DNA from: Cryomorphaceae bacterium
GTDB taxonomy: Bacteria > Bacteroidota > Bacteroidia > Flavobacteriales_D > Crocinitomicaceae
Length of the DNA stretch: 64,000 bases
Assembly (NCBI GenBank): GCA_027483605.1
Contig: JAIXUE010000022.1
Location: 1-64,000 of the forward strand
Direction of reading: 5' to 3'
The notes below the pieces were generated by a model. The model saw nothing but the letters and a program-made list of their open reading frames with translations, did not search any database and was not told where the DNA came from. Every line of letters starts with the position of its first letter. Position 1 is the first letter of the stretch. Below are positions 17,656-26,899 of the stretch, one piece after another. A program made the position numbers and the translations under genes.

Positions 17656-17747
17656 TGCTTATAACTTATTAATTTCGTGCAATTGGCAGTATATTGTACT
17701 ACCGAATCAAAATTAGAAAACATTTCACAATCTCATTCAACAGCACT

Positions 17748-18323
17748 ATGTTTTTAGAGCAATTTACCAAAGAAAACGGACAACAAGGTTGGATAGAAGT
17801 GATTTGTGGTTCCATGTTTTCTGGTAAAACCGAAGAACTCATCCGCAGACTCCGGCGTGCCGCTTTTGCCAAACAAGCAATTTTGCTCTTCAAGCCACTT
17901 ATCGATGACCGCTATGCCACAGAGGCTGTTGTGAGCCATCAAGGGCAAAGTTGGGAAGCCAAGCGCGTTGCATCCGCACAAGAAGTATTCGACGGATGGA
18001 AAGGAGAACAAATTGTAGCTATAGATGAAGCACAGTTTTTTGATGCCCAAATTGTTCAAGTTTGCAACGAACTTTCAAACAAAGGTGTTCGTGTCATCGT
18101 TGCGGGTTTAGACATGGACTTTAAAGGAATTCCTTTTGGCCCTATGCCGCAGCTGATGGCGATTGCAGAATATGTCAGTAAAGTACATGCTGTATGTGTG
18201 CACTGCGGTAAACTAGCGCAGTTCTCGCATCGGACGGTAGCCCAAACTGAGCAAGTTTTGGTAGGCGCCGTAGAAAAATATCAACCGCTCTGCAGGAGTT
18301 GTTATCAAAAAGCCTTGTCATGA
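17748..18323 (+). CDS. tdk: Thymidine kinase
   Basis: A 191-residue type II thymidine kinase, salvaging thymidine to dTMP. The P-loop is GSMFSGKTEELIRRLRRA (about residues 20-37), the Walker B/catalytic Glu lies in IVAIDEAQFFD (about 88-98), and the structural zinc site is formed by CVHC (about 145-148) and CRSC (about 181-184). The ATG at 17748 gives the usual N-terminus (MFLEQF... GWIEVICGS); an in-frame TTG at 17694 would add 18 residues. A TAATTTCG box at 17670-17677 is a one-mismatch promoter. The stop overlaps the next start (ATGA). Confidence 0.94.
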   Translation: MFLEQFTKENGQQGWIEVICGSMFSGKTEELIRRLRRAAFAKQAILLFKPLIDDRYATEAVVSHQGQSWEAKRVASAQEVFDGWKGEQIVAIDEAQFFDAQIVQVCNELSNKGVRVIVAGLDMDFKGIPFGPMPQLMAIAEYVSKVHAVCVHCGKLAQFSHRTVAQTEQVLVGAVEKYQPLCRSCYQKALS

Positions 18324-20569
18324 AACTGAGCCTTACCCCTGCGCAATTGCAAGACATCTTAGGTGCGACCTGTATTGGTACAAACACTAATTTATTGGTT
18401 CAAGAAGTTGTTTACGATTCGCGCAAAATTTCGCGCAGTGAAGGCGCCGCTTTTTTTGGACTAAATGGTCCCAAGCGTAGCGGAGCGGATTATGTCGAGG
18501 ATGCGCATCAGAAAGGTATTCGCAGTTTTGTGCTCGATCAAGCGCCTACTAAGCTATATCCTGACTCTAATTTCTATATCGTTACTGACGTACTTGAGGC
18601 ACTTCAGAAACTAGCTGCCTACCACCGTCAAAGAATCAATTATCCTATTGTTGCCATCGCTGGCACCATTGGCAAAACCACCGTCAAAGAGTGGATATAT
18701 CATCTTTTAGCCGGAAAGCTCAAGGTACAGCGCAGCCCAAAAAGTTACAATTCTCAGCTAGGGGTAGCACTTTCGTTGTTGCAGCTTCCTTTAGAGGGAG
18801 ATTTAGCGCTCATTGAGGCGGCTGTGAGTAAATCAGGCGAGATGGAGAAGCTCCATGCCATGATTGCGCCAAATTATTTAGTGATTACTACAAAAAAAGC
18901 AGGTTTTCGCCATGAGTTTGGTTCAGACGCTGCTTATTACCAAGCGCTAGACCACCTTGCAACAGGTTGTGAGTGGGTGCTCGATGGTGACCTCTTGAGC
19001 AAACAAAGCTCAGAAAATTCGAGTTCCTTGTTCGAACAAATTCCGTTTAATGACCCTGTTCGCCTTCATAATGCACAAGTTGCGATTACCTGTGCACTTC
19101 GTTTTGGCAGCTGCAAACCAAATGATGTTGCGGAGCTTCCAAAGCTAGCCAATCGTTTGGAAACCTTTGAGGGTATTCAGGGGGCCACCCTGATCAATGA
19201 CTCCTACACCCTCGATTTATTCGCTTTTGAGGGCTCACTTGCCTTTTTAAAGGCAGTAGCACAGCACAAGCAGCAAATGGTCTGCTGCTTATTGGCTGCA
19301 AATCAGGTTCATTTAAAAGAAGAGATTATTGGTCTGCTGCAGGCTTATCAAATTAAGCAATATTATATCTGGACCAAACTACCCGAAAACCTACCAATTA
19401 TAGACCACCATGTCGTCTTGATCAAGGGCAATCAGCATTTGTTAACTGAAGCGTTATTGGCCAAATGGAAGCGCAAGTCGCACAGTACTGTGGTGCGGTA
19501 TGACCTTTCTGCTCTTCAACACAATTTGCGCCAATACCAACAAAGTCTGGCGCCAACAACTCAAATACTTGCCATGGTCAAGGCGCAAGCTTATGGCGCA
19601 GGTTTAGATCAAATTGCAAAGCAACTCGTATCAGGTGGAGTCAATTATTTTGGCGTTGCATATGCAGATGAAGGCGTTTTGCTCAGGCAGGCAGGGATCA
19701 ATTTACCCATTTTAGTCATGAACGCCGAGCCTGCTGGCTTCGAGAGTTGCATTCAGTACCAACTCGAGCCTGCAATTTATAGCCCTGTCCACCTAGACGC
19801 CTTTATACGTACCCTCATAGCAGCACAAATCCAAGCTTATCCTATTCATTTAAAGTTCGATACTGGCATGCACCGTTTGGGTTTCATGCCCGAACAAACC
19901 GATCAATTGTTACAAACGCTCAGCGCTCAGCCAGAAGTGATTGTCAAGAGTGTATATAGCCACATGGCATGCGCAGACCAGCCTCAGCACCCAATGAACA
20001 GACAGCAAATTACATGTTTCAAAGAAATTTGCGGTCGCTTAGAAAGTACGCTGGCATATCCTTTTTTCAAGCATCTAATGAATTCTGAAGGCGCGGCTCA
20101 TTTTCCAGATGCGCAATTCGATATGGTGCGCCTGGGCATTGGACTTTTTGGCGTTAATCACGATGCAGTCTTTGAAGCCAAACTCAAACCGGTCATCACT
20201 TGGACAAGTCAGATCTCACAACTCAAGCAACTCAAACAGGGTGATTTTGTTGGCTACGGTTGCTCAGAAGCATTGGATGCCGATAGTCAAATCGCAGTGA
20301 TTCCCGTTGGTTACGCCGATGGTTTCAAGCGAAAGTTAAGTAATGGAATAGGAGGGGTATATATCGACGGAATCTATTGCCCCACTATTGGTAGCGTTTG
20401 TATGGACATGATCATGGTTTTGGCACCAAATGCAAGCCTAAGTTCGGAGGTAGAAATTATAGGCCTGCACCAAACGCTCCATGATTTTGCCACAAAGGCG
20501 CAGACAATTCCTTATGAAATACTTACAAGTATCTCACCTCGCGTGCAAAGAACTTATGTGAATGATTAA
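18320..20569 (+). CDS. murF-alr: Bifunctional MurF-like ligase / alanine racemase fusion
   Basis: A 749-residue fusion known from Bacteroidota. The N-terminal half (about 1-390) is MurF-like, with a Mur ligase P-loop written AIAGTIGKTTVKE where most members have GTNGKTT, then SYNSQLGVALS and NDSYTLDLFAFEGSL. The C-terminal half (about 393-749) is a PLP fold III alanine racemase: the PLP lysine in MVKAQAYGAG, the catalytic Tyr in DFVGYGCSE, and the C-terminal GSVCMDMIMV. The pair would make D-Ala and join D-Ala-D-Ala to the UDP-MurNAc tripeptide. Start at ATG 18320, overlapping tdk. The MurF half may be weakened; the racemase looks intact. Confidence 0.92.
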   Translation: MKLSLTPAQLQDILGATCIGTNTNLLVQEVVYDSRKISRSEGAAFFGLNGPKRSGADYVEDAHQKGIRSFVLDQAPTKLYPDSNFYIVTDVLEALQKLAAYHRQRINYPIVAIAGTIGKTTVKEWIYHLLAGKLKVQRSPKSYNSQLGVALSLLQLPLEGDLALIEAAVSKSGEMEKLHAMIAPNYLVITTKKAGFRHEFGSDAAYYQALDHLATGCEWVLDGDLLSKQSSENSSSLFEQIPFNDPVRLHNAQVAITCALRFGSCKPNDVAELPKLANRLETFEGIQGATLINDSYTLDLFAFEGSLAFLKAVAQHKQQMVCCLLAANQVHLKEEIIGLLQAYQIKQYYIWTKLPENLPIIDHHVVLIKGNQHLLTEALLAKWKRKSHSTVVRYDLSALQHNLRQYQQSLAPTTQILAMVKAQAYGAGLDQIAKQLVSGGVNYFGVAYADEGVLLRQAGINLPILVMNAEPAGFESCIQYQLEPAIYSPVHLDAFIRTLIAAQIQAYPIHLKFDTGMHRLGFMPEQTDQLLQTLSAQPEVIVKSVYSHMACADQPQHPMNRQQITCFKEICGRLESTLAYPFFKHLMNSEGAAHFPDAQFDMVRLGIGLFGVNHDAVFEAKLKPVITWTSQISQLKQLKQGDFVGYGCSEALDADSQIAVIPVGYADGFKRKLSNGIGGVYIDGIYCPTIGSVCMDMIMVLAPNASLSSEVEIIGLHQTLHDFATKAQTIPYEILTSISPRVQRTYVND

Positions 20570-20597: not shown

Positions 20598-21701
20598 ATG
20601 AAAAGTATTTTATTGTTTTTGATTTTACTCTGTTCATTAAAGACTAATGCACAGGTTACAAAACAGGAGGGAGATACCCTTAAATACTTGATTATTAGAA
20701 ATAATGGCATAGAATACGTCGGTCAAATTTTATCTGATGACGGCCGTGAATTATTGATTTTGACCCAACAACTCGGCAAAATTTATATCCCAAAATCAGA
20801 TATAAAAAGTGTGACTTTAGTAAACGAGCAAACGGACTTCAAAGATGGAGAATTTTTAGGTCAGGGTGTTTTCACGACCCGCTATCAGTTTACAACCAAC
20901 GCCTTTCCAATTAAAAAGGGAGAAAATTATGCGCTCATCAATTTATATGGGCCCGAAGTTCATTTTGGGGTGCTGCCCAACCTCAGCGTTGGGATCATGG
21001 CGACTTGGATTGCCAGCCCAATTGCCTTGGCCTTGAAATACACGATTCCTACACAAAACCCAAAACTAAATTTTGGTCTAGGTACCATTATGGCTTCTTC
21101 CGGTTATTTTAATCAAGCTAAAGGAATCGGAGGATTGCATTGGGCAATGGCTACTTACGGAACGCGTCGCAGCAACGCCACGCTTTCTTTAGGTTATGGA
21201 TATTTTAATTCGGGCTTCTCTTTTTCAAATCAAAATACCTATTATCAGCCTGGAACATATGCAGCGGTATTGAACCAAGGGTCTTATATTTTCCCGATAC
21301 CAGAAATGCTTACCTACGAAAATGAAGTTGGAAATTTCAAATCGCCAATAATTGGGATATCAGGCATAACAGTAGTCAGTAAAAAAGCGAGTATTATTTG
21401 GGACGTCATGATCATTGGAGGCAATAAACGAAAAGTCTTTGACGGCCAACAAGTAGATTATTTTTATGATCCATTTACGAGTCAGCCAAGCTCGGTTGTG
21501 TACAACGACCCATTCATAGACGTAAAAAGCACCAATTTTGTCATCATGCCGGGTATGCGTTTTCAAAAAGATGAAAACAAGGCTTTTCAGGTGACGCTCG
21601 CCGGCGTGATTGGCCGGCGTGAAGAAACCGTCAATTATCAACTCAACGTAAATAGTTATTCTTTCCCGATACCAATGCTCAGTTGGTTCTATAAGTTTTA
21701 A
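20598..21701 (+). CDS. Secreted, probably outer-membrane protein (barrel paralogue 1)
   Basis: A 367-residue exported protein without a named family that I recognise. Signal peptide about 1-19 (ending LKTNAQ). Residues about 28-75 form a small beta-rich unit with LSDDGRELLI and LGKIYIPKSDIKSV. The rest alternates short polar and aromatic strands (FTTRYQFTTNAFPIKKGENYA, LSVGIMATWI, ATLSLGYGYFN) and ends in Phe (LSWFYKF), typical of outer-membrane barrels. It is clearly paralogous to the product at 24236-25309. The helix-turn-helix gene begins 2 bases after its stop. Barrel nature and export are inferred. Confidence 0.75.
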   Translation: MKSILLFLILLCSLKTNAQVTKQEGDTLKYLIIRNNGIEYVGQILSDDGRELLILTQQLGKIYIPKSDIKSVTLVNEQTDFKDGEFLGQGVFTTRYQFTTNAFPIKKGENYALINLYGPEVHFGVLPNLSVGIMATWIASPIALALKYTIPTQNPKLNFGLGTIMASSGYFNQAKGIGGLHWAMATYGTRRSNATLSLGYGYFNSGFSFSNQNTYYQPGTYAAVLNQGSYIFPIPEMLTYENEVGNFKSPIIGISGITVVSKKASIIWDVMIIGGNKRKVFDGQQVDYFYDPFTSQPSSVVYNDPFIDVKSTNFVIMPGMRFQKDENKAFQVTLAGVIGRREETVNYQLNVNSYSFPIPMLSWFYKF

Positions 21702-21703
21702 GT

Positions 21704-22717
21704 ATGGAAACAGTTCAAGATCAGTTGTTGCAACTCATTAAGGCAAAACTCCCGCCAGGCGATGCATTGGGTCATATCTTGAGTGAAACACTGCATATCA
21801 GCATGGATGCTGCTTATCGCCGAATGCGCAATGAAACTGCGCTGACTATCGATGAACTCAAAAGGCTTTGTAAAACCTTTGATATCTCGTTTGACTCCCT
21901 GATTTTACAACAGAAAACAAATGTGATTTTCCGGTACACGCCCCTCAATGCCTATGATTTTTCTTTGGAATCATATTTAGAGGGCATCCTTGATGCATTC
22001 GAGCGTTTGCGTCATCTAGAGGATCCAAAAATCATGCTCACGATCAATAATACGCATTTTTTTCAGCTCTTGAATTTTCCGCAATTAGTGCGCTTTAAAT
22101 TGTTTTTTTGGGCCAAAACACACTTGCAAATCCCAGATTATAAAAATGTACTTTTTCGACACGAAAAAACTACAGACCGTGCCTTCGAACTTGGTAAATC
22201 TATTTTGCAATCTTACAATACCATTCCGTCGGTAGAAATTTTTGATCCCGAGCTCATGCGTGGTTTTTTGCGGCAAATTCATTATTACTACAAATCCAAT
22301 CAATTCGAAGACCCTACTTACGCGCTCTTTTTATGTGATCGCCTGCTCATGTTTTCTTCCCATCTGCGCGAACAAGCAACTCATGGTAAAAAATTCATAT
22401 ATGGCACGCAAGTGCCAGCAACGGGCAACCACTTCGAGATGTACCTCAATGAGACCATCAATGCCGATTCTGCATTTTATTACGAAAGCAAAGACAAGCA
22501 AGGATTGTTTCTCTCTCACAACATCATGAATTACCTTCAAACTACTGATGTGCAATATGTACAAGATGCCAAGCAAGTTATCGACAAGCAATTAGCTAAT
22601 TCGAGCCTGATCAGCGTTGTGAATGAACGCGAACGCAATAATTTCTTTGCGGATTTTGAAAAAACAATTGGCATGTTTCGTAAGAAAATCGAGGCTGACC
22701 TTGATTTTCTCTCCTAG
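21704..22717 (+). CDS. Helix-turn-helix protein of unknown function
   Basis: A 337-residue cytoplasmic protein. Residues about 1-65 resemble an XRE-like helix-turn-helix: LGHILSETLHISMDAAYRRM, then TIDELKRLCKTFDISFDSLI. The remaining 270 residues are mainly helical with many aromatic residues and show no motif I can name; they may be a sensing or dimerisation domain. There is no signal peptide or membrane helix. It starts 2 bases after the barrel-paralogue gene, so the two are almost certainly co-transcribed, suggesting a regulator tied to that envelope protein. DNA binding is inferred. Confidence 0.7.
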   Translation: METVQDQLLQLIKAKLPPGDALGHILSETLHISMDAAYRRMRNETALTIDELKRLCKTFDISFDSLILQQKTNVIFRYTPLNAYDFSLESYLEGILDAFERLRHLEDPKIMLTINNTHFFQLLNFPQLVRFKLFFWAKTHLQIPDYKNVLFRHEKTTDRAFELGKSILQSYNTIPSVEIFDPELMRGFLRQIHYYYKSNQFEDPTYALFLCDRLLMFSSHLREQATHGKKFIYGTQVPATGNHFEMYLNETINADSAFYYESKDKQGLFLSHNIMNYLQTTDVQYVQDAKQVIDKQLANSSLISVVNERERNNFFADFEKTIGMFRKKIEADLDFLS

Positions 22718-22814
22718 CACTTGCGTTTTTCGCAACTCCGATATCATTGGCTTTGATAATCAGTTTTGTCTTTATCGCGCATTGATTCACCTTTGTAGCA
22801 TCAAATTGTATGCT

Positions 22815-24011
22815 ATGAAAACAAAAAAATTACAATCCGTTTTATTATTAGTGGTCATTTTCTTTAGTGGGATGGCCAGTTATTTTGCTCAGCCTAACAG
22901 CACCATTGCTGTAGCCAATCCAAATGTAAATGCGCTGACGATCAAGCCGGAGTCGGTGGCTAAAATGCTGCGTCTTGAGTTGATAAAAATCAATAAATAC
23001 AAAGTCTATGATGAATTTGACATGAATGAAATCATCAAGGCTAAAGAAGAGTATAAGGTGGGCTGTTATGGCCAGAACTGTTTATCTAAATTGGGCGAAG
23101 AACTCAAAGTAGATTACGTTATGTGTGGTTCTATTGATGGCTTGGGAAACAAGATTGTTGTTACCATCAAAATTATTGACGTCAAGGCACAAAGTCTTTA
23201 TAAGTCTGCGGTTCGTGAATTTGACAACCAAGAATTAGAAATCCAACGCATGGTTGAAATCGTCTTAGCCGAAATGCACGGCTTTACTGTAGACAAAGTC
23301 ATTGCCGATCGCTTGGCCTTTAAAAATGAAGTCATTACTTCCAACAATGTGGGTAAAATCAATAATTCAGGCCCGCGAATTGGTTTTGCTGCCATGACTG
23401 GAGAAGTTGCTGAATTCGCTACACGACCTGAAGTTTACGGTGGATTAGGCATCCAGCCATTTACCTCCATGATTGGTTATCAGATCGAAGGTCAATATGT
23501 TGGCACCGATAATTTTTCTGCATTGGTCGAGGGTATTTTTAACATTTCTGGCTTAGAGCAGAGCAATTTTATTCCTTCTTTTTCATTGTTAAATGGTTTT
23601 CGTTTTGGCAAAGCCAATTGGGAATTTGCATTTGGCCCAAGATTTGGCATCAAATCAACATCAATAGGTTTCTTGGACAAAGACGCGGAATATGGCCCTG
23701 CAGGAGGCTACTACACAGAAAACGAATGGATTGCATCTGGAGGTAAAGTGAACGTTCAAACTGGTGAGCTCATTGCAGTGCCTAATGGAGGTTTTACTGA
23801 ACATTTTGACAGAGATGGAAAAAAAGAACTTGCCACCTCTTTCTTAATGGCCTTTGGCCGCACCTTTCAGGCAGGTTCTTTGAATATCCCTGTCAATTTA
23901 TTTTACAGTTCTCAGAAAGGCGGCGGTTTTGTAGGCGTGAATATGGGTTTTAATGTCCAAAAGAGTAAACAACCGATAAACAAAACGAAGAGTCCGCAGC
24001 GTTATTATTAG
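22815..24011 (+). CDS. Secreted CsgG/TolB-N-like protein of unknown function
   Basis: A 398-residue exported protein. The ATG at 22815 gives a signal peptide (about 1-28, ending SYFAQ); an in-frame start 192 bases upstream lies inside the preceding gene and is rejected. Residues about 40-160 resemble the nucleotide-binding-like fold of CsgG/TolB-N type proteins (YKVYDEFDMNEIIKA, GCYGQNCLSKLGEELKVDYV, VVTIKIIDVKAQSLY). Residues about 185-398 look beta-rich and barrel-like (GNLNIP-type strands, GFRFGKANWEFAFGPRFG). A CACCTTTG at 22789-22796 is a one-mismatch -7 box. A strong terminator follows. Confidence 0.7.
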   Translation: MKTKKLQSVLLLVVIFFSGMASYFAQPNSTIAVANPNVNALTIKPESVAKMLRLELIKINKYKVYDEFDMNEIIKAKEEYKVGCYGQNCLSKLGEELKVDYVMCGSIDGLGNKIVVTIKIIDVKAQSLYKSAVREFDNQELEIQRMVEIVLAEMHGFTVDKVIADRLAFKNEVITSNNVGKINNSGPRIGFAAMTGEVAEFATRPEVYGGLGIQPFTSMIGYQIEGQYVGTDNFSALVEGIFNISGLEQSNFIPSFSLLNGFRFGKANWEFAFGPRFGIKSTSIGFLDKDAEYGPAGGYYTENEWIASGGKVNVQTGELIAVPNGGFTEHFDRDGKKELATSFLMAFGRTFQAGSLNIPVNLFYSSQKGGGFVGVNMGFNVQKSKQPINKTKSPQRYY

Positions 24012-24073
24012 GACTTCAAGCAAACTAGATAAAAATCAAAACACAACTTTTCGTTTGTTAGTGTTTCGCATGG

Positions 24074-24106
24074 ACGCTCTGCTTCTTCGGAAGTCAGGGC
24101 GTTTTT
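24074..24106 (+). terminator. Intrinsic terminator with a UUCG tetraloop
   Basis: A stem of about 12 pairs (24074-24085 with 24090-24102, one G-U pair and one bulged T) closes a C(UUCG)G tetraloop and runs into five Ts. It ends the CsgG-like transcript. The 224-base gap around it (24012-24235) holds no other feature I can support. Confidence 0.8.
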
Positions 24107-24235
24107 GCGCAAGATTTTCTCTTTCCCCTGCCAATGGAGAGTTGGTTTTTCTAGTTGTCGCTTTTTTAACTTGCTTTTGGCTCTTTGTATCGTTATAACT
24201 AGATTTACGCTTTAATAGATTTTTTTATCTACAAC

Positions 24236-25309
24236 ATGAAAACTCGTCTTCATTTTTCAACGCTTCTTTCCATATGCTTCCTCTTCATTGGATGCCTTCA
24301 ATTACATGCGCAAGCACCAAATACGAGCGCACCAAGTTCAGATACCACCAAATATTTAGTTGTCAAATACGACGGCAACGAATATGTAGGCCTTATCCTT
24401 TCCGATGATGGACGCGAGGTACTTATAGAGACCAAATCTCTAGGTAAAATATACATTCCAAAAAGTGACATCAAGTCATTTCGACCCGTAGACTACGCTG
24501 AGGATATCGCGAAAGGCGAATTCAGCACTGCAGGGGTATTTACCACCCGCTATCAGTTTACCACTAACTGTTTTCCGATCAAAAAAGGGGAGAATTATGC
24601 CATGCTCAATTTATATGGCCCTGAGGTGCATTTTGCCGTCCACAAAGATTTTTCTGTGGGGGTGATGTCCACCTGGATTGGTTCGCCAATGGCATTAGCC
24701 CTTAAATACACGCGCGGCACTTCCAATCCAAAAATTAATTATGGGGTCGGCACACTCTTTGGCACTTCAGGATACATTAATCAAGGCAGCGGATTTGGTG
24801 GTTTACATTGGGGCATGATTACCTATGGTGATCGCCGCAATAACGCCACACTTTCAATAGGTTATGGTTATTTGAATGACGGAGGCAATGATTTTTATAA
24901 TGAAATCATTTATGTACCAGGTACTTATTCATCTGTTAGCGGCGCATACCCTATACTGCCAATTCAAGACATACAACCTGTCAGTACGAGTAGATACAAA
25001 GCCCCAATCATTGGGTTGGCAGGCCAAGCTAAAGTTGGAAAAAAGGCAAGTTTTATTTACGATTGCATGATGATCAGCGCGACTTCAGGATATGATCAAG
25101 AAATTGACAACCAATATGGAAGTAATGGGCAATTACAACAAGTTGTTGTTGGTCAAGTAAAGCAAAACCGTCAGCAGATTTTAATCATTATGCCAGGCAT
25201 GCGTTTTCAAAGAACAGAAAACAAGGCATTTCAGATCAGTTTGGCAGGTGTCATTACCGCTAAGAGGTCCTTCCCCTTACCGATGGCCAGTTGGTTTTAT
25301 AGAATTTAA
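24236..25309 (+). CDS. Secreted, probably outer-membrane protein (barrel paralogue 2)
   Basis: A 357-residue exported protein closely similar to the product at 20598-21701. Shared blocks include LSDDGRE, LGKIYIPKSDIKS, GVFTTRYQFTTN, FPIKKGENYA, LYGPEVHF and a C-terminal SWFYRI. Signal peptide about 1-26 (ending LQLHAQ). The middle loops differ most (about residues 215-300), as expected for surface loops of a barrel. The stop is followed after 18 bases by the cyclase-HD gene with no terminator between, so they are likely one transcript. No named family recognised; barrel nature is inferred from strand pattern and the aromatic-rich C-terminus. Confidence 0.75.
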   Translation: MKTRLHFSTLLSICFLFIGCLQLHAQAPNTSAPSSDTTKYLVVKYDGNEYVGLILSDDGREVLIETKSLGKIYIPKSDIKSFRPVDYAEDIAKGEFSTAGVFTTRYQFTTNCFPIKKGENYAMLNLYGPEVHFAVHKDFSVGVMSTWIGSPMALALKYTRGTSNPKINYGVGTLFGTSGYINQGSGFGGLHWGMITYGDRRNNATLSIGYGYLNDGGNDFYNEIIYVPGTYSSVSGAYPILPIQDIQPVSTSRYKAPIIGLAGQAKVGKKASFIYDCMMISATSGYDQEIDNQYGSNGQLQQVVVGQVKQNRQQILIIMPGMRFQRTENKAFQISLAGVITAKRSFPLPMASWFYRI

Positions 25310-25327
25310 GCACCCTTTTAAAGCACA

Positions 25328-26899
25328 TTGGTTATAGCCCTTTTCATATTTCAATCTTGGTGGCTGTCTATTTTGGCAGCCTCGTTTTTGTTTTTGTTGA
25401 TTTTTGTTTTTATCCGCAGCCGGATCGAAACATCGCGCAGAAATCAAGTGAGGCTCGAGGTCAAAATTGCCGAACGCACTAAAGAAATACGGCTACAAAA
25501 AACCAAAATTGAGGAGCAAAAACGCCTTTTAGAAGAAGAGAAAACTAAAGTAGAGGAGCAGCAAGCGCTCTTGCAGCGCGAAAAAGACCGCACTGAACAA
25601 TGGCTCCTGAATACCTTGCCCTCACAAGTTGTTATTGAGCTCAAACGCAATGGAAAAGTTAAGGCACAGGCATTTAAGCAGGTTTCCATTATGTTTACCG
25701 ACGTAGTGGGCTTTACCCGAATTTCTGAATCGATGGCGCCGAGTAGGATTGTTTCTAAACTCGATATCTTGTTTCAGAAGTTCGATGAAATCATTCAGGC
25801 CAATAACCTTGAAAAAATCAAGACAATCGGAGATGCATACATGTGTGCTGGTGGTGTGCCGGTAGAGAACTCAACCAATCCGATAGACGCCTGTTGCGCT
25901 GCCTTGCAAATACAGGCTTTCATGGAAAAGCTCAAGTACGAAGCCATTGCAGATCACGAAGACTACTGGGAAATCCGTTTAGGAATCAACACTGGGCCTG
26001 TCATTGCAGGAATCATTGGGAATATTCGCTTGGCTTATGACGTTTGGGGTTCTTCTGTAAACCTTGCGCAGCGCATGGAGATGCTCGGCGAGCCAGGAAA
26101 AGTAACCATTACGGGCAATACCTTCCAGCAAATTGAACCTTATTTTGAATGTGATTACAAGGGCAAAGCCTTGACCAAATCGCGCACAAAATTAGATATG
26201 TACGTGGTGCAACGAATTAAACCAGAGCTTTCTGTCAATGGAGAGGGGCTTATTCCGAATTCTCGTTTTGAGGAAATCAAGAAATTACACCACTACAGCT
26301 CTATTAAGTATTACAAAACAGAGCACCACGTGATGGGAATCCTTCAAAAAAACCTCGCTCCATCGCTCTATTATCATTCGATCAACCACACCAAAGATGT
26401 TGTTAAATCTGTGGAGCGCATTGCTTTATTAGAAGGTGTCACTGACGAAGGCCTCTTCTTACTCAAAACGGCTGCAATTTTCCACGACGCAGGTTTTATT
26501 GACCAATATGACCACAACGAGGCAATCGGTGCTCGAATGGCACAGGAAATCTTACCTAAGTATGGTTATACCGAGCAGCATGTCAAAACAATTGTCGAGC
26601 TCATTCATGCGACCGAAATACCGCACAAACCCATCAATAAACTCCAAGAAATCATTTGCGATGCCGACCTCGATTATTTGGGGCGTTCGGACTTCGAGCA
26701 AATTGCCGACAACCTTAGAAAAGAGCTCACCGAAATGGGAAAAATCAAATCTCGAAAAGAGTGGGATACAATTCAAGTGAATTTCCTCAAGCAGCATCAG
26801 TATTTCACGGCAACTGCAATCGAATCTCGTCAAAAAAAGAAACAAGAAAACCTACAAGTTGTCATTGATCGCTTGGCAGCAGATACTTACACCGATTGA
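25328..26899 (+). CDS. Class III adenylate cyclase with C-terminal HD domain, lacking a sensor domain
   Basis: A 523-residue inner-membrane protein: one membrane helix (about 11-30), a coiled coil (about 34-90), a class III cyclase domain (about 115-295) and an HD-type domain (about 340-460). Cyclase metal residues are D125 (MFTDVVGFT) and D169 (TIGDAYM); K165 and D238 specify adenine; N245 and R249 complete the site. The HD set is H386-D387, H427 and D446. The helix start FQSWWLSIL resembles the segment that follows periplasmic Y_Y_Y/beta-propeller sensors, but nothing precedes it here. No ATG exists before residue 122; TTG 25328 is the first start after an in-frame stop (25319). The start is uncertain. 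Confidence 0.85.
   Translation: MVIALFIFQSWWLSILAASFLFLLIFVFIRSRIETSRRNQVRLEVKIAERTKEIRLQKTKIEEQKRLLEEEKTKVEEQQALLQREKDRTEQWLLNTLPSQVVIELKRNGKVKAQAFKQVSIMFTDVVGFTRISESMAPSRIVSKLDILFQKFDEIIQANNLEKIKTIGDAYMCAGGVPVENSTNPIDACCAALQIQAFMEKLKYEAIADHEDYWEIRLGINTGPVIAGIIGNIRLAYDVWGSSVNLAQRMEMLGEPGKVTITGNTFQQIEPYFECDYKGKALTKSRTKLDMYVVQRIKPELSVNGEGLIPNSRFEEIKKLHHYSSIKYYKTEHHVMGILQKNLAPSLYYHSINHTKDVVKSVERIALLEGVTDEGLFLLKTAAIFHDAGFIDQYDHNEAIGARMAQEILPKYGYTEQHVKTIVELIHATEIPHKPINKLQEIICDADLDYLGRSDFEQIADNLRKELTEMGKIKSRKEWDTIQVNFLKQHQYFTATAIESRQKKKQENLQVVIDRLAADTYTD

What the first reader, a model, noticed from the sequence alone, without database searches (positions are those of the whole stretch)
20598..26899. 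Two paralogous envelope proteins, each joined to a different cytoplasmic regulator
The secreted barrel-like proteins at 20598-21701 and 24236-25309 are clear paralogues sharing many blocks. The first is followed after 2 bases by a helix-turn-helix protein, the second after 18 bases by an adenylate cyclase-HD protein. A CsgG-like exported protein and a strong terminator lie between, so there are two transcripts. This looks like a duplicated envelope-sensing module with two outputs, one transcriptional and one through cAMP. The link between barrel and regulator is inferred from position only.
Basis: partly seen in the sequence, partly recalled or inferred. Interest (0 to 1): 0.6.

Follow-up and report, generated by a model that had tools for sequence, protein, structure and literature searches.

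The report
HTH regulator of outer-membrane barrel genes
The two barrel proteins look like regulated outer-membrane proteins rather than sensors: the neighbouring DNA-binding protein sits beside a conserved 15-base palindrome that recurs in front of other envelope genes in related bacteria, while the neighbouring cyclase is the conserved stump of a sensor enzyme that lost its sensing half.

Summary
The interpretation largely turns round. (1) The old unit is HTH plus an exported CsgG/FlgO-like gene: next to each other in 44 of 80 sampled HTH loci, eight genera. Barrels adjoin HTH in 13 of 33 loci of the window's genus, 0 of 47 elsewhere. (2) A palindrome TTGCG-N5-CGCAA lies between HTH and that gene in 43 of those 44 loci (window 22721-22735). 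It also precedes 11 of 43 examined barrel genes outside the genus, on other contigs than HTH, mostly about 80 nt before the start: 11 of 30 in HTH-bearing genomes, 0 of 13 in genomes without detected HTH. Barrels are thus probably HTH targets, not its sensors. (3) The cyclase is nearly family-wide (232 of 240 genomes), normally about 1300 aa with its own propeller sensor. The window's clade lost the sensor, apparently before barrel 2 arose; two other lineages lost it independently. (4) The 'strong terminator' is the signal-peptide end of a deleted third barrel. Binding of HTH to the palindrome is inferred, not shown.

The parts
20598..21701 (+). Barrel 1 (B1): predicted outer-membrane beta-barrel, 367 aa, 28 nt after the MurF-Alr-like fusion gene (that name is recalled, from no call)
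21704..22717 (+). HTH regulator, 337 aa: N-terminal Cro/C1-like DNA-binding domain, about 270-residue C-terminal part of unknown fold; one match in the genome
   Evidence: dN/dS 0.010-0.018
22721..22735 (.). Proposed operator, palindrome TTGCGTTTTTCGCAA, beginning at the 4th base after the HTH stop codon
22757..22768 (+). Second conserved element (consensus about TTGNNNAATTCARTTTT), about 15-25 nt after the palindrome in most loci
   Evidence: position counted by eye
22788..22795 (+). Possible Bacteroidota -7 box (CACCTTTG against the recalled consensus TAnnTTTG)
   Evidence: read; papers using that consensus string for Flavobacterium: listing only
22815..24011 (+). Exported CsgG/FlgO-like protein, 398 aa; the gene most often found directly after HTH
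24014..24113 (+). Scar, 5' part: start region (ATG now ATC) and signal peptide of a deleted third barrel; holds the hairpin read as a terminator (24072-24106)
   Evidence: 89/99 identical to L076
24131..24227 (+). Scar, 3' part: last codons (PMESWFF-stop) of the deleted barrel and the leader of barrel 2
   Evidence: 85/96 identical to L076
24236..25309 (+). Barrel 2 (B2): paralogue of B1, 357 aa
25328..26899 (+). Sensorless adenylate cyclase-HD, 523 aa: hydrophobic segment, coiled-coil-like stretch (both read by eye), class III cyclase, HD domain; most relatives are about 1300 aa

Best explanation
The HTH protein is a one-component transcription regulator of a small envelope regulon. A dimer most likely binds TTGCG-N5-CGCAA, with a second contact about 30 nt downstream, just upstream of the promoter, and controls the CsgG/FlgO-like gene, members of the barrel family and a few other exported proteins. 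B1 and B2 are its targets or operon companions, products of repeated tandem gain and loss of barrels at this place, and not sensors feeding the regulators. The cyclase is an old, nearly family-wide enzyme that lost its periplasmic propeller sensor in this clade and remains under strong constraint; it lies in the same variable stretch between MurF-Alr and DUF2490. Shown: gene order and its conservation, the palindrome and its position, co-occurrence with HTH, the scar, the sensor losses. Inferred: that HTH binds the palindrome, activation (from its place upstream of the promoter), any co-transcription, and what signal the HTH C-terminal part reads.
For: Palindrome in 43 of 44 loci where HTH is followed by the CsgG/FlgO-like gene (35 exact, 8 with one mismatch) against 0.029 sites per kb elsewhere in the same loci; 5 of the 44 are a 265-aa variant that scores only 36-41 bits, without which it is 38 of 39. 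The site precedes that gene also where other genes intervene (L225, L226, L217, L188). AT in the core 98.5% of 260 bases. Where a different gene follows HTH, that gene can have the site: 7 of the 11 hits among 599 other ORFs are the gene right after HTH. Barrels outside the genus: 11 of 43, Fisher p 1.4e-8 against the 599 ORFs; 11 of 30 in HTH genomes against 0 of 13 in genomes without a detected HTH, p 0.019. The third barrel paralogue of the own genome has a one-mismatch site 65 nt before its start, and 7 of 11 own sites lie 48-93 nt before exported-looking genes. Exact AT-core sites: 12 of 12 chosen HTH genomes (19 sites, 3 reversed-pattern controls) against 2 of 20 without detected HTH (1 control). 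Of those two, one site is inside a coding gene; the other genome's contig ends inside the CsgG/FlgO-like gene, so its HTH may simply be missing from the assembly. In L094 (the same locus as L188) a barrel lying between HTH and CSGG has its own copy 79 nt upstream.
Against: 32 of 43 examined barrels outside the genus have no site, only 3 of 59 barrels not behind MurF-Alr in the named-genome loci have one (these include organisms of other families, and some loci overlap), and window B1 and B2 have none of their own. Six of the 11 positive barrels are orthologues within one genus (g27), found with one of them as query, so they are not independent; the other five come from three genera. About ten listed barrel places outside the genus were not fetched. 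The stricter count of CSGG genes with a site 40-130 nt before a start is 38 of 59. The genome comparison is not phylogenetically independent, and most sites counted in HTH genomes are the one beside HTH. No binding data. Distances were taken to the candidate ATG nearest 81 nt, which sharpens the peak. The HTH model is poor beyond the DNA-binding domain (pLDDT 66.5) and no profile reaches its cut-off. Another conserved regulator could own the site.
Confidence: 0.72

Rival explanations
1. One reading: each barrel is an envelope sensor that signals to the regulator encoded after it, one to DNA (HTH) and one to cAMP.
For: Close spacing (2 and 18 nt); MurFAlr-B-HTH in 23 of 92 barrel rows and B directly before the short cyclase in 11 of 92. 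The cyclase lost its own sensor, so an outside input would be useful.
Against: HTH has no adjacent barrel in 47 of 47 sampled loci outside the genus (in L248 a weak 90-bit barrel homologue lies three genes downstream). Short cyclases without B2 include a sister group of 9 rows and L089; HTH without B1 occurs in L080, L083, L085, L087, L088. B2 has about four times the dN/dS of the cyclase (0.066-0.099 against 0.014-0.022). An outer-membrane barrel cannot touch either cytoplasmic protein without a periplasmic partner; none is known and none was searched for.
Confidence: 0.06
2. The barrels next to HTH and cyclase are there only because this stretch between MurF-Alr and DUF2490 is a place where envelope genes are gained and lost; neither barrel is functionally tied to either regulator.
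For: Contents vary: no barrel, one, two or three; ferritin, 250-270 aa exported proteins, SDR- and epimerase-like genes (names recalled) come and go; barrel scars. Most barrels lack the palindrome.
Against: Shared palindrome in front of unlinked barrels and the barrel-HTH-CSGG trio at other genomic places in G003, G029, G014.
Confidence: 0.17
3. The palindrome is an RNA element (hairpin or terminator of the HTH transcript) rather than a protein-binding site.
For: It begins at the 1st to 4th base after the HTH stop in many loci and can form a 5-bp stem; in L199 and L201 it lies inside a longer GC hairpin.
Against: The arms are conserved in sequence, the core is almost always A/T, one-mismatch versions such as TTGCA...CGCAA break the stem, and the site also occurs about 80 nt before barrels on contigs other than the HTH gene's. 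Covariation was not tested formally.
Confidence: 0.05

Closest known systems
Cro/C1 (XRE)-type one-component regulators (P22 c2 repressor, C.Esp1396I; BetR, HTH_26 in Pfam)
   Same: N-terminal helix-turn-helix-like domain; short palindromic candidate operator next to the regulator gene
   Different: All Pfam scores below cut-off; about 270-residue C-terminal part without profile or PDB sequence relative and no confident fold match; candidate targets are exported envelope proteins; no site 40-130 nt upstream of its own gene (0 of 80 ORFs)
KdgM/NanC oligosaccharide porins (monomeric barrels; 12 strands as recalled)
   Same: Fold of residues 120-357 of B2 (Z 19.0 and 18.7)
   Different: 9% identity; extra N-terminal small beta domain (residues 39-84); no Pfam, NCBIfam, PHROGs or PDB sequence match
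Two-component-regulator-propeller sensor proteins with class III cyclase output
   Same: Full-length relative L053: Reg_prop, Y_Y_Y, cyclase, HD; the window copy keeps the part from the hydrophobic segment on
   Different: Window copy lacks the propeller and Y_Y_Y parts
CsgG/FlgO lipoprotein family
   Same: Weak similarity of part of the N-terminal half (FlgO 14.4 bits, residues 90-132)
   Different: Below cut-off; no CsgG hit; long C-terminal part not matched

Membership tests
Cro/C1 (XRE)-type HTH regulator | Profile match to an HTH family over its curated cut-off | tested here: not met
   BetR 20.4/21.6, HTH_26 15.2/22, HTH_3 13.7/23 bits; so described as HTH-like, not filed as a member
Cro/C1 (XRE)-type HTH regulator | Fold of the DNA-binding domain | tested here: inconclusive
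   P22 c2, C.Esp1396I and XRE chains align over 64-71 columns with probability 0.9-0.99 but E about 0.2-0.5; model pLDDT 66.5
Cro/C1 (XRE)-type HTH regulator | Binds a palindromic operator | not testable with these tools
   Candidate operator found; binding not measured
Outer-membrane beta-barrel (KdgM/NanC-like) | Barrel fold | tested here: met
   KdgM Z 19.0, rmsd 1.9 A, 159 aligned, on a model of pLDDT 84.7
Outer-membrane beta-barrel (KdgM/NanC-like) | Sequence membership | tested here: not met
   No Pfam, NCBIfam or PDB sequence match
Class III adenylate cyclase | Guanylate_cyc domain over cut-off | tested here: met
   162.3 bits against 21.9; PDB relatives
Class III adenylate cyclase | Lys and Asp that select ATP, metal-binding Asp residues | tested here: met
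   FTDVVGFT at 123, KIKTIGDAYM at 163, DVWGSSVNLAQRM at 238; which residues count is recalled from the family; activity not tested
Propeller (Reg_prop/Y_Y_Y) sensor cyclase | Propeller and Y_Y_Y domain | tested here: not met
   Absent from the 523-aa window protein; present in the 1304-aa relative
CsgG/FlgO family | Profile match over cut-off | tested here: not met
   FlgO 14.4 against 22.6 bits, CsgG not listed

The most novel reading that the evidence does not exclude
In this clade cAMP synthesis was rewired from ligand control to gene control: the cyclase lost its propeller sensor after the HTH-palindrome-CSGG unit had settled in front of it, so that the palindrome now drives a CSGG-(barrel)-(ferritin)-cyclase operon and HTH sets cAMP by setting the amount of a sensorless enzyme, with envelope proteins and cAMP in one regulon.
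Probability: 0.25. Interest if true: 0.75.

Novelty: new member of a known kind. Interest (0 to 1): 0.55.

Why it matters
It would give an unnamed regulator family of Crocinitomicaceae (below every cut-off, no PDB relative) a testable operator and a first regulon of outer-membrane proteins; the paper searches made here (listings only) showed nothing on it, which is weak evidence of absence. It also gives a natural experiment: a nearly family-wide sensor cyclase that lost its sensor at least three times while, in the window's clade, the catalytic half stayed under strong constraint, which makes the question of what a sensorless cyclase is for directly testable. And it shows a trap: a textbook-looking terminator between two genes that is the fossil signal peptide of a deleted gene.

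Tried and rejected
Structure of HTH: the model from 27 close relatives is poor (pLDDT 66.5); weak Foldseek rows to Rgg/PlcR/PrgX (E 0.09-0.4, TM about 0.2) are not taken as evidence.

Promoter/terminator scan: numbers no higher than in shuffles, and it did not list the hairpin.

'CSGG-B2 gap of 23-33 nt leaves no room for a terminator' (my note): it holds for L076-L078, L081, L082, L085, L086, L088, but the window, L079 and L089 have longer gaps that hold the hairpin; in the window and L089 these match barrel 5' ends well, in L079 less clearly (67/85 with gaps). In the sister group without B2 another hairpin (GAAGGGGCTTCGGCCCCTTT or one base different) follows CSGG in 8 of the 9 CSGG-CYC rows other than L089; L104 gave no gap because of an over-long ORF call. 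This speaks against simple co-transcription of CSGG and cyclase there and against the novel case.

B2 as the ancestral barrel of the cyclase locus: rejected, since B2 groups with B1 (SH-aLRT 81, modest) and not with the MurFAlr-B-ferritin barrels.

Rows dropped or not taken: barrel rows under 290 aa or at most 200 bits were left out; one search kept the best 80 of 107 relatives (76 loci); 80 HTH places of 155 HTH-positive genomes and 20 cyclase places were picked by me; about ten barrel places outside the genus listed were not fetched; contig-edge cyclases were left out of the change count. ORFs are longest-frame calls, so starts may be too early. Gene names MurF-Alr, thymidine kinase, SDR, epimerase and CPBP are recalled, from no call.

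Literature: searches are search listings only; no paper was opened. 0 papers for the palindrome string, 0 for propeller + adenylate cyclase + Bacteroidetes; the 12 listed of 5,244 do not mention the family.
Full report
WHAT IS THERE. B1 and B2 are paralogues (188/366 identical, E 8e-121). HTH follows B1 by 2 bases; the cyclase follows B2 by 18 bases in the same frame, with a TTG start. The window lies on contig 2 of a 2.39-Mb genome, 99.9% complete; named relatives place it in Crocinitomicaceae, one of them titled UBA952 (L087). AlphaFold gives B2 as a small N-terminal beta domain (39-84) plus a barrel like the KdgM/NanC porins (Z 19.0 and 18.7). That N-terminal hydrophobic stretches are signal peptides is read by eye. 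Gene names MurF-Alr, SDR and epimerase are recalled.

WHO SITS NEXT TO WHOM. Of 60 relatives, 34 have a barrel homologue. Neighbourhoods in the genus fall into states: B1-HTH-CSGG-B2-cyclase as in the window (G034, G020, G022, G016; G011 and G285 with three barrels); no B1 (G027, G013, G023, G267, G239); no B2 (G008, G015, G002, G035 and others); and MurFAlr-barrel-ferritin-full-length cyclase without HTH or CSGG (G005, G030, G032, G019, G026). In G003, G029 and G014 barrel-HTH-CSGG stands elsewhere, with no cyclase in the stretch. I fetched 80 HTH loci out of the 155 HTH-positive genomes of 399 searched. CSGG is the next gene in 44 and within a few genes in 56; 5 of the 44 are the weak 265-aa variant. 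A barrel adjoins HTH in 13 of 33 loci of the genus and in 0 of 47 outside, two of these from other families; L248 has a weak barrel homologue three genes away. So HTH-CSGG is the old pair and the adjoining barrel a local addition.

WHERE B2 CAME FROM. In a tree of 92 barrels B1 and B2 form sister clades (SH-aLRT 81; each clade 100) next to the other HTH-linked barrels, apart from the barrels of the ferritin-cyclase state. Barrels are often in tandem or repeated in one locus: L076, L081, L094, L106, L112, L114, L132, L147. The 224-nt gap before B2 in the window is the scar of one more: its left part matches the start and signal peptide of the middle barrel of L076 (89/99), its right part the last codons of that gene and the B2 leader (85/96); the best of 200 shuffled scores was 37 against 158 (shuffles were run for the left part only). 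The hairpin called a strong terminator (z -4.2) is signal-peptide code. In L089, which has no B2, the gap before the cyclase still matches the 5' end of a B2 (66/85 with L078), so B2 was probably lost there.

THE PALINDROME. Directly after HTH, in front of CSGG, lies TTGCG-N5-CGCAA (window 22721-22735). Of 44 loci with CSGG next to HTH, 35 have it exactly and 8 with one mismatch; the one miss is L216. In the same loci such sites otherwise occur at 0.029 per kb. Of 58 CSGG genes (265-aa variants included) in these loci 52 have a site upstream; 36 of the 52 distances are 79-88 nt, with the caveat that the script took the ATG nearest 81. A stricter count, site 40-130 nt before an early start, gives 38 of 59 CSGG, 11 of 599 other ORFs and 0 of 80 HTH ORFs; 7 of those 11 are the gene right after HTH. 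The core is A or T in 98.5% of 260 positions. A second element, about TTGNNNAATTCARTTTT, follows at a nearly fixed spacing in most, and in some barrels (G356, G378, G327) it begins with TTGCG again, 30 nt after the first. A Bacteroidota-type -7 box can be read after it.

TARGETS AWAY FROM HTH. In the own genome 11 sites with at most one mismatch (4 for the reversed control pattern) include 4 inside genes and 7 lying 48-93 nt before exported-looking proteins, among them the third barrel paralogue on contig 8 (site 65 nt before its start). Outside the genus 43 barrel genes of 38 genomes were examined, about ten listed places not: 11 have a site 60-102 nt before the first start, at 75-83 nt in 9 of them. 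All 11 are in genomes with HTH (11 of 30 genes) and on other contigs than the HTH gene; none of 13 genes in genomes where one search found no HTH has one (p 0.019). Six of the 11 are orthologues in genus g27, near the query; the other five come from genera g29, g30 and g32. Among barrels not behind MurF-Alr in the named-genome loci only 3 of 59 have a site within 250 nt (L094, L114, L132), L114 being the same locus as the G147 hit. So the link holds for a part of the family only. Exact AT-core sites occur in 12 of 12 chosen HTH genomes and in 2 of 20 genomes without a detected HTH; of these two, one site is inside a coding gene, the other genome's contig ends inside CSGG, and a further one of the 20 (G336) has a contig that begins at the cyclase. 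These genome counts are not phylogenetically independent, and sites beside HTH make up most of the first group; the Fisher p of 1.8e-7 should be read so.

THE CYCLASE. A match at E 1e-30 or better exists in 232 of 240 family genomes and in 150 of the 151 good ones. The usual protein is about 1300 aa; L053 has Reg_prop, Y_Y_Y, cyclase and HD. A ferritin gene is directly upstream in 14 of 20 cyclase loci fetched; 3 of the 6 misses are contig ends. In the window's clade the ORF begins just before the hydrophobic segment, by ORF calls that start with different codons in different species. On a tree of 59 cyclases short forms need three changes (contig-edge rows left out): the window's clade (24 rows, SH-aLRT 100), G189, and G203 of genus g27; the latter two have no barrel in the stretch fetched. 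In the clade a sister group of 9 rows has no B2, and its barrels branch off before the B1/B2 split, so the sensor probably went first; loss of B2 there cannot be excluded, as L089 shows. The cyclase is under strong constraint (dN/dS 0.014-0.022), like HTH (0.010-0.018), while CSGG (0.032-0.045), B1 (0.055-0.080) and B2 (0.066-0.099) are freer; dS is near saturation and undefined for some pairs, so the ratios are rough. It is the only match to this protein in the genome at E 0.001, which has three cNMP-binding domains over cut-off. With the ATP-selecting residues present, cAMP signalling is plausible but untested.

HOW IT MOST LIKELY WORKS. HTH, made from the MurF-Alr operon (inferred from short gaps), binds the palindrome and switches CSGG and, where they carry the site, barrels and other exported proteins. 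Site position upstream of the promoter suggests activation; this is inference. What HTH senses is unknown; its C-terminal part is the candidate. B1 is likely made together with HTH, B2 near CSGG and the cyclase. Whether the cyclase shares CSGG's transcript is open: gaps are short in several relatives, but hairpins follow CSGG in others.

VERDICT. Real genes, real barrel-HTH link, probably in the opposite direction from that proposed; the cAMP branch is a separate story of a sensor lost.

Noticed in passing
L273-L287, e.g. L274: Ferritin gene directly upstream of a propeller-sensor adenylate cyclase-HD gene in several genera (14 of 20 cyclase loci fetched): a possible iron-storage and cAMP pair.
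   Followed up: partly
L268 (G203) and L269 (G189): Two further, independent losses of the cyclase's propeller sensor (517 and 537 aa).
   Followed up: partly
window 18299-20569: MurF-alanine racemase-like fusion gene upstream of B1, overlapping the thymidine-kinase-like gene 17694-18323 (names recalled, from no call).
   Followed up: no
L203, L208, L225, L226, L248, L254: In some genomes HTH is followed by epimerase-like, CPBP-type membrane protein and SDR-like genes (names recalled) instead of CSGG; L208 and L248 have a one-mismatch site before the epimerase-like gene.
   Followed up: partly
L192-L198: CSGG replaced by a 265-aa protein that keeps a CSGG-like C-terminal part (36-41 bits) but has another N-terminal part, palindrome mostly retained, some with one mismatch.
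   Followed up: no
L300, L301 (G000 contig 35, 81061 and 84071): Two similar-looking 309- and 306-aa exported proteins of unknown family, each with a one-mismatch palindrome 48-75 nt upstream.
   Followed up: no
L199, L201: Palindrome lies inside a longer GC-rich hairpin; in L199 a T run follows. Operator and terminator may be merged there.
   Followed up: no
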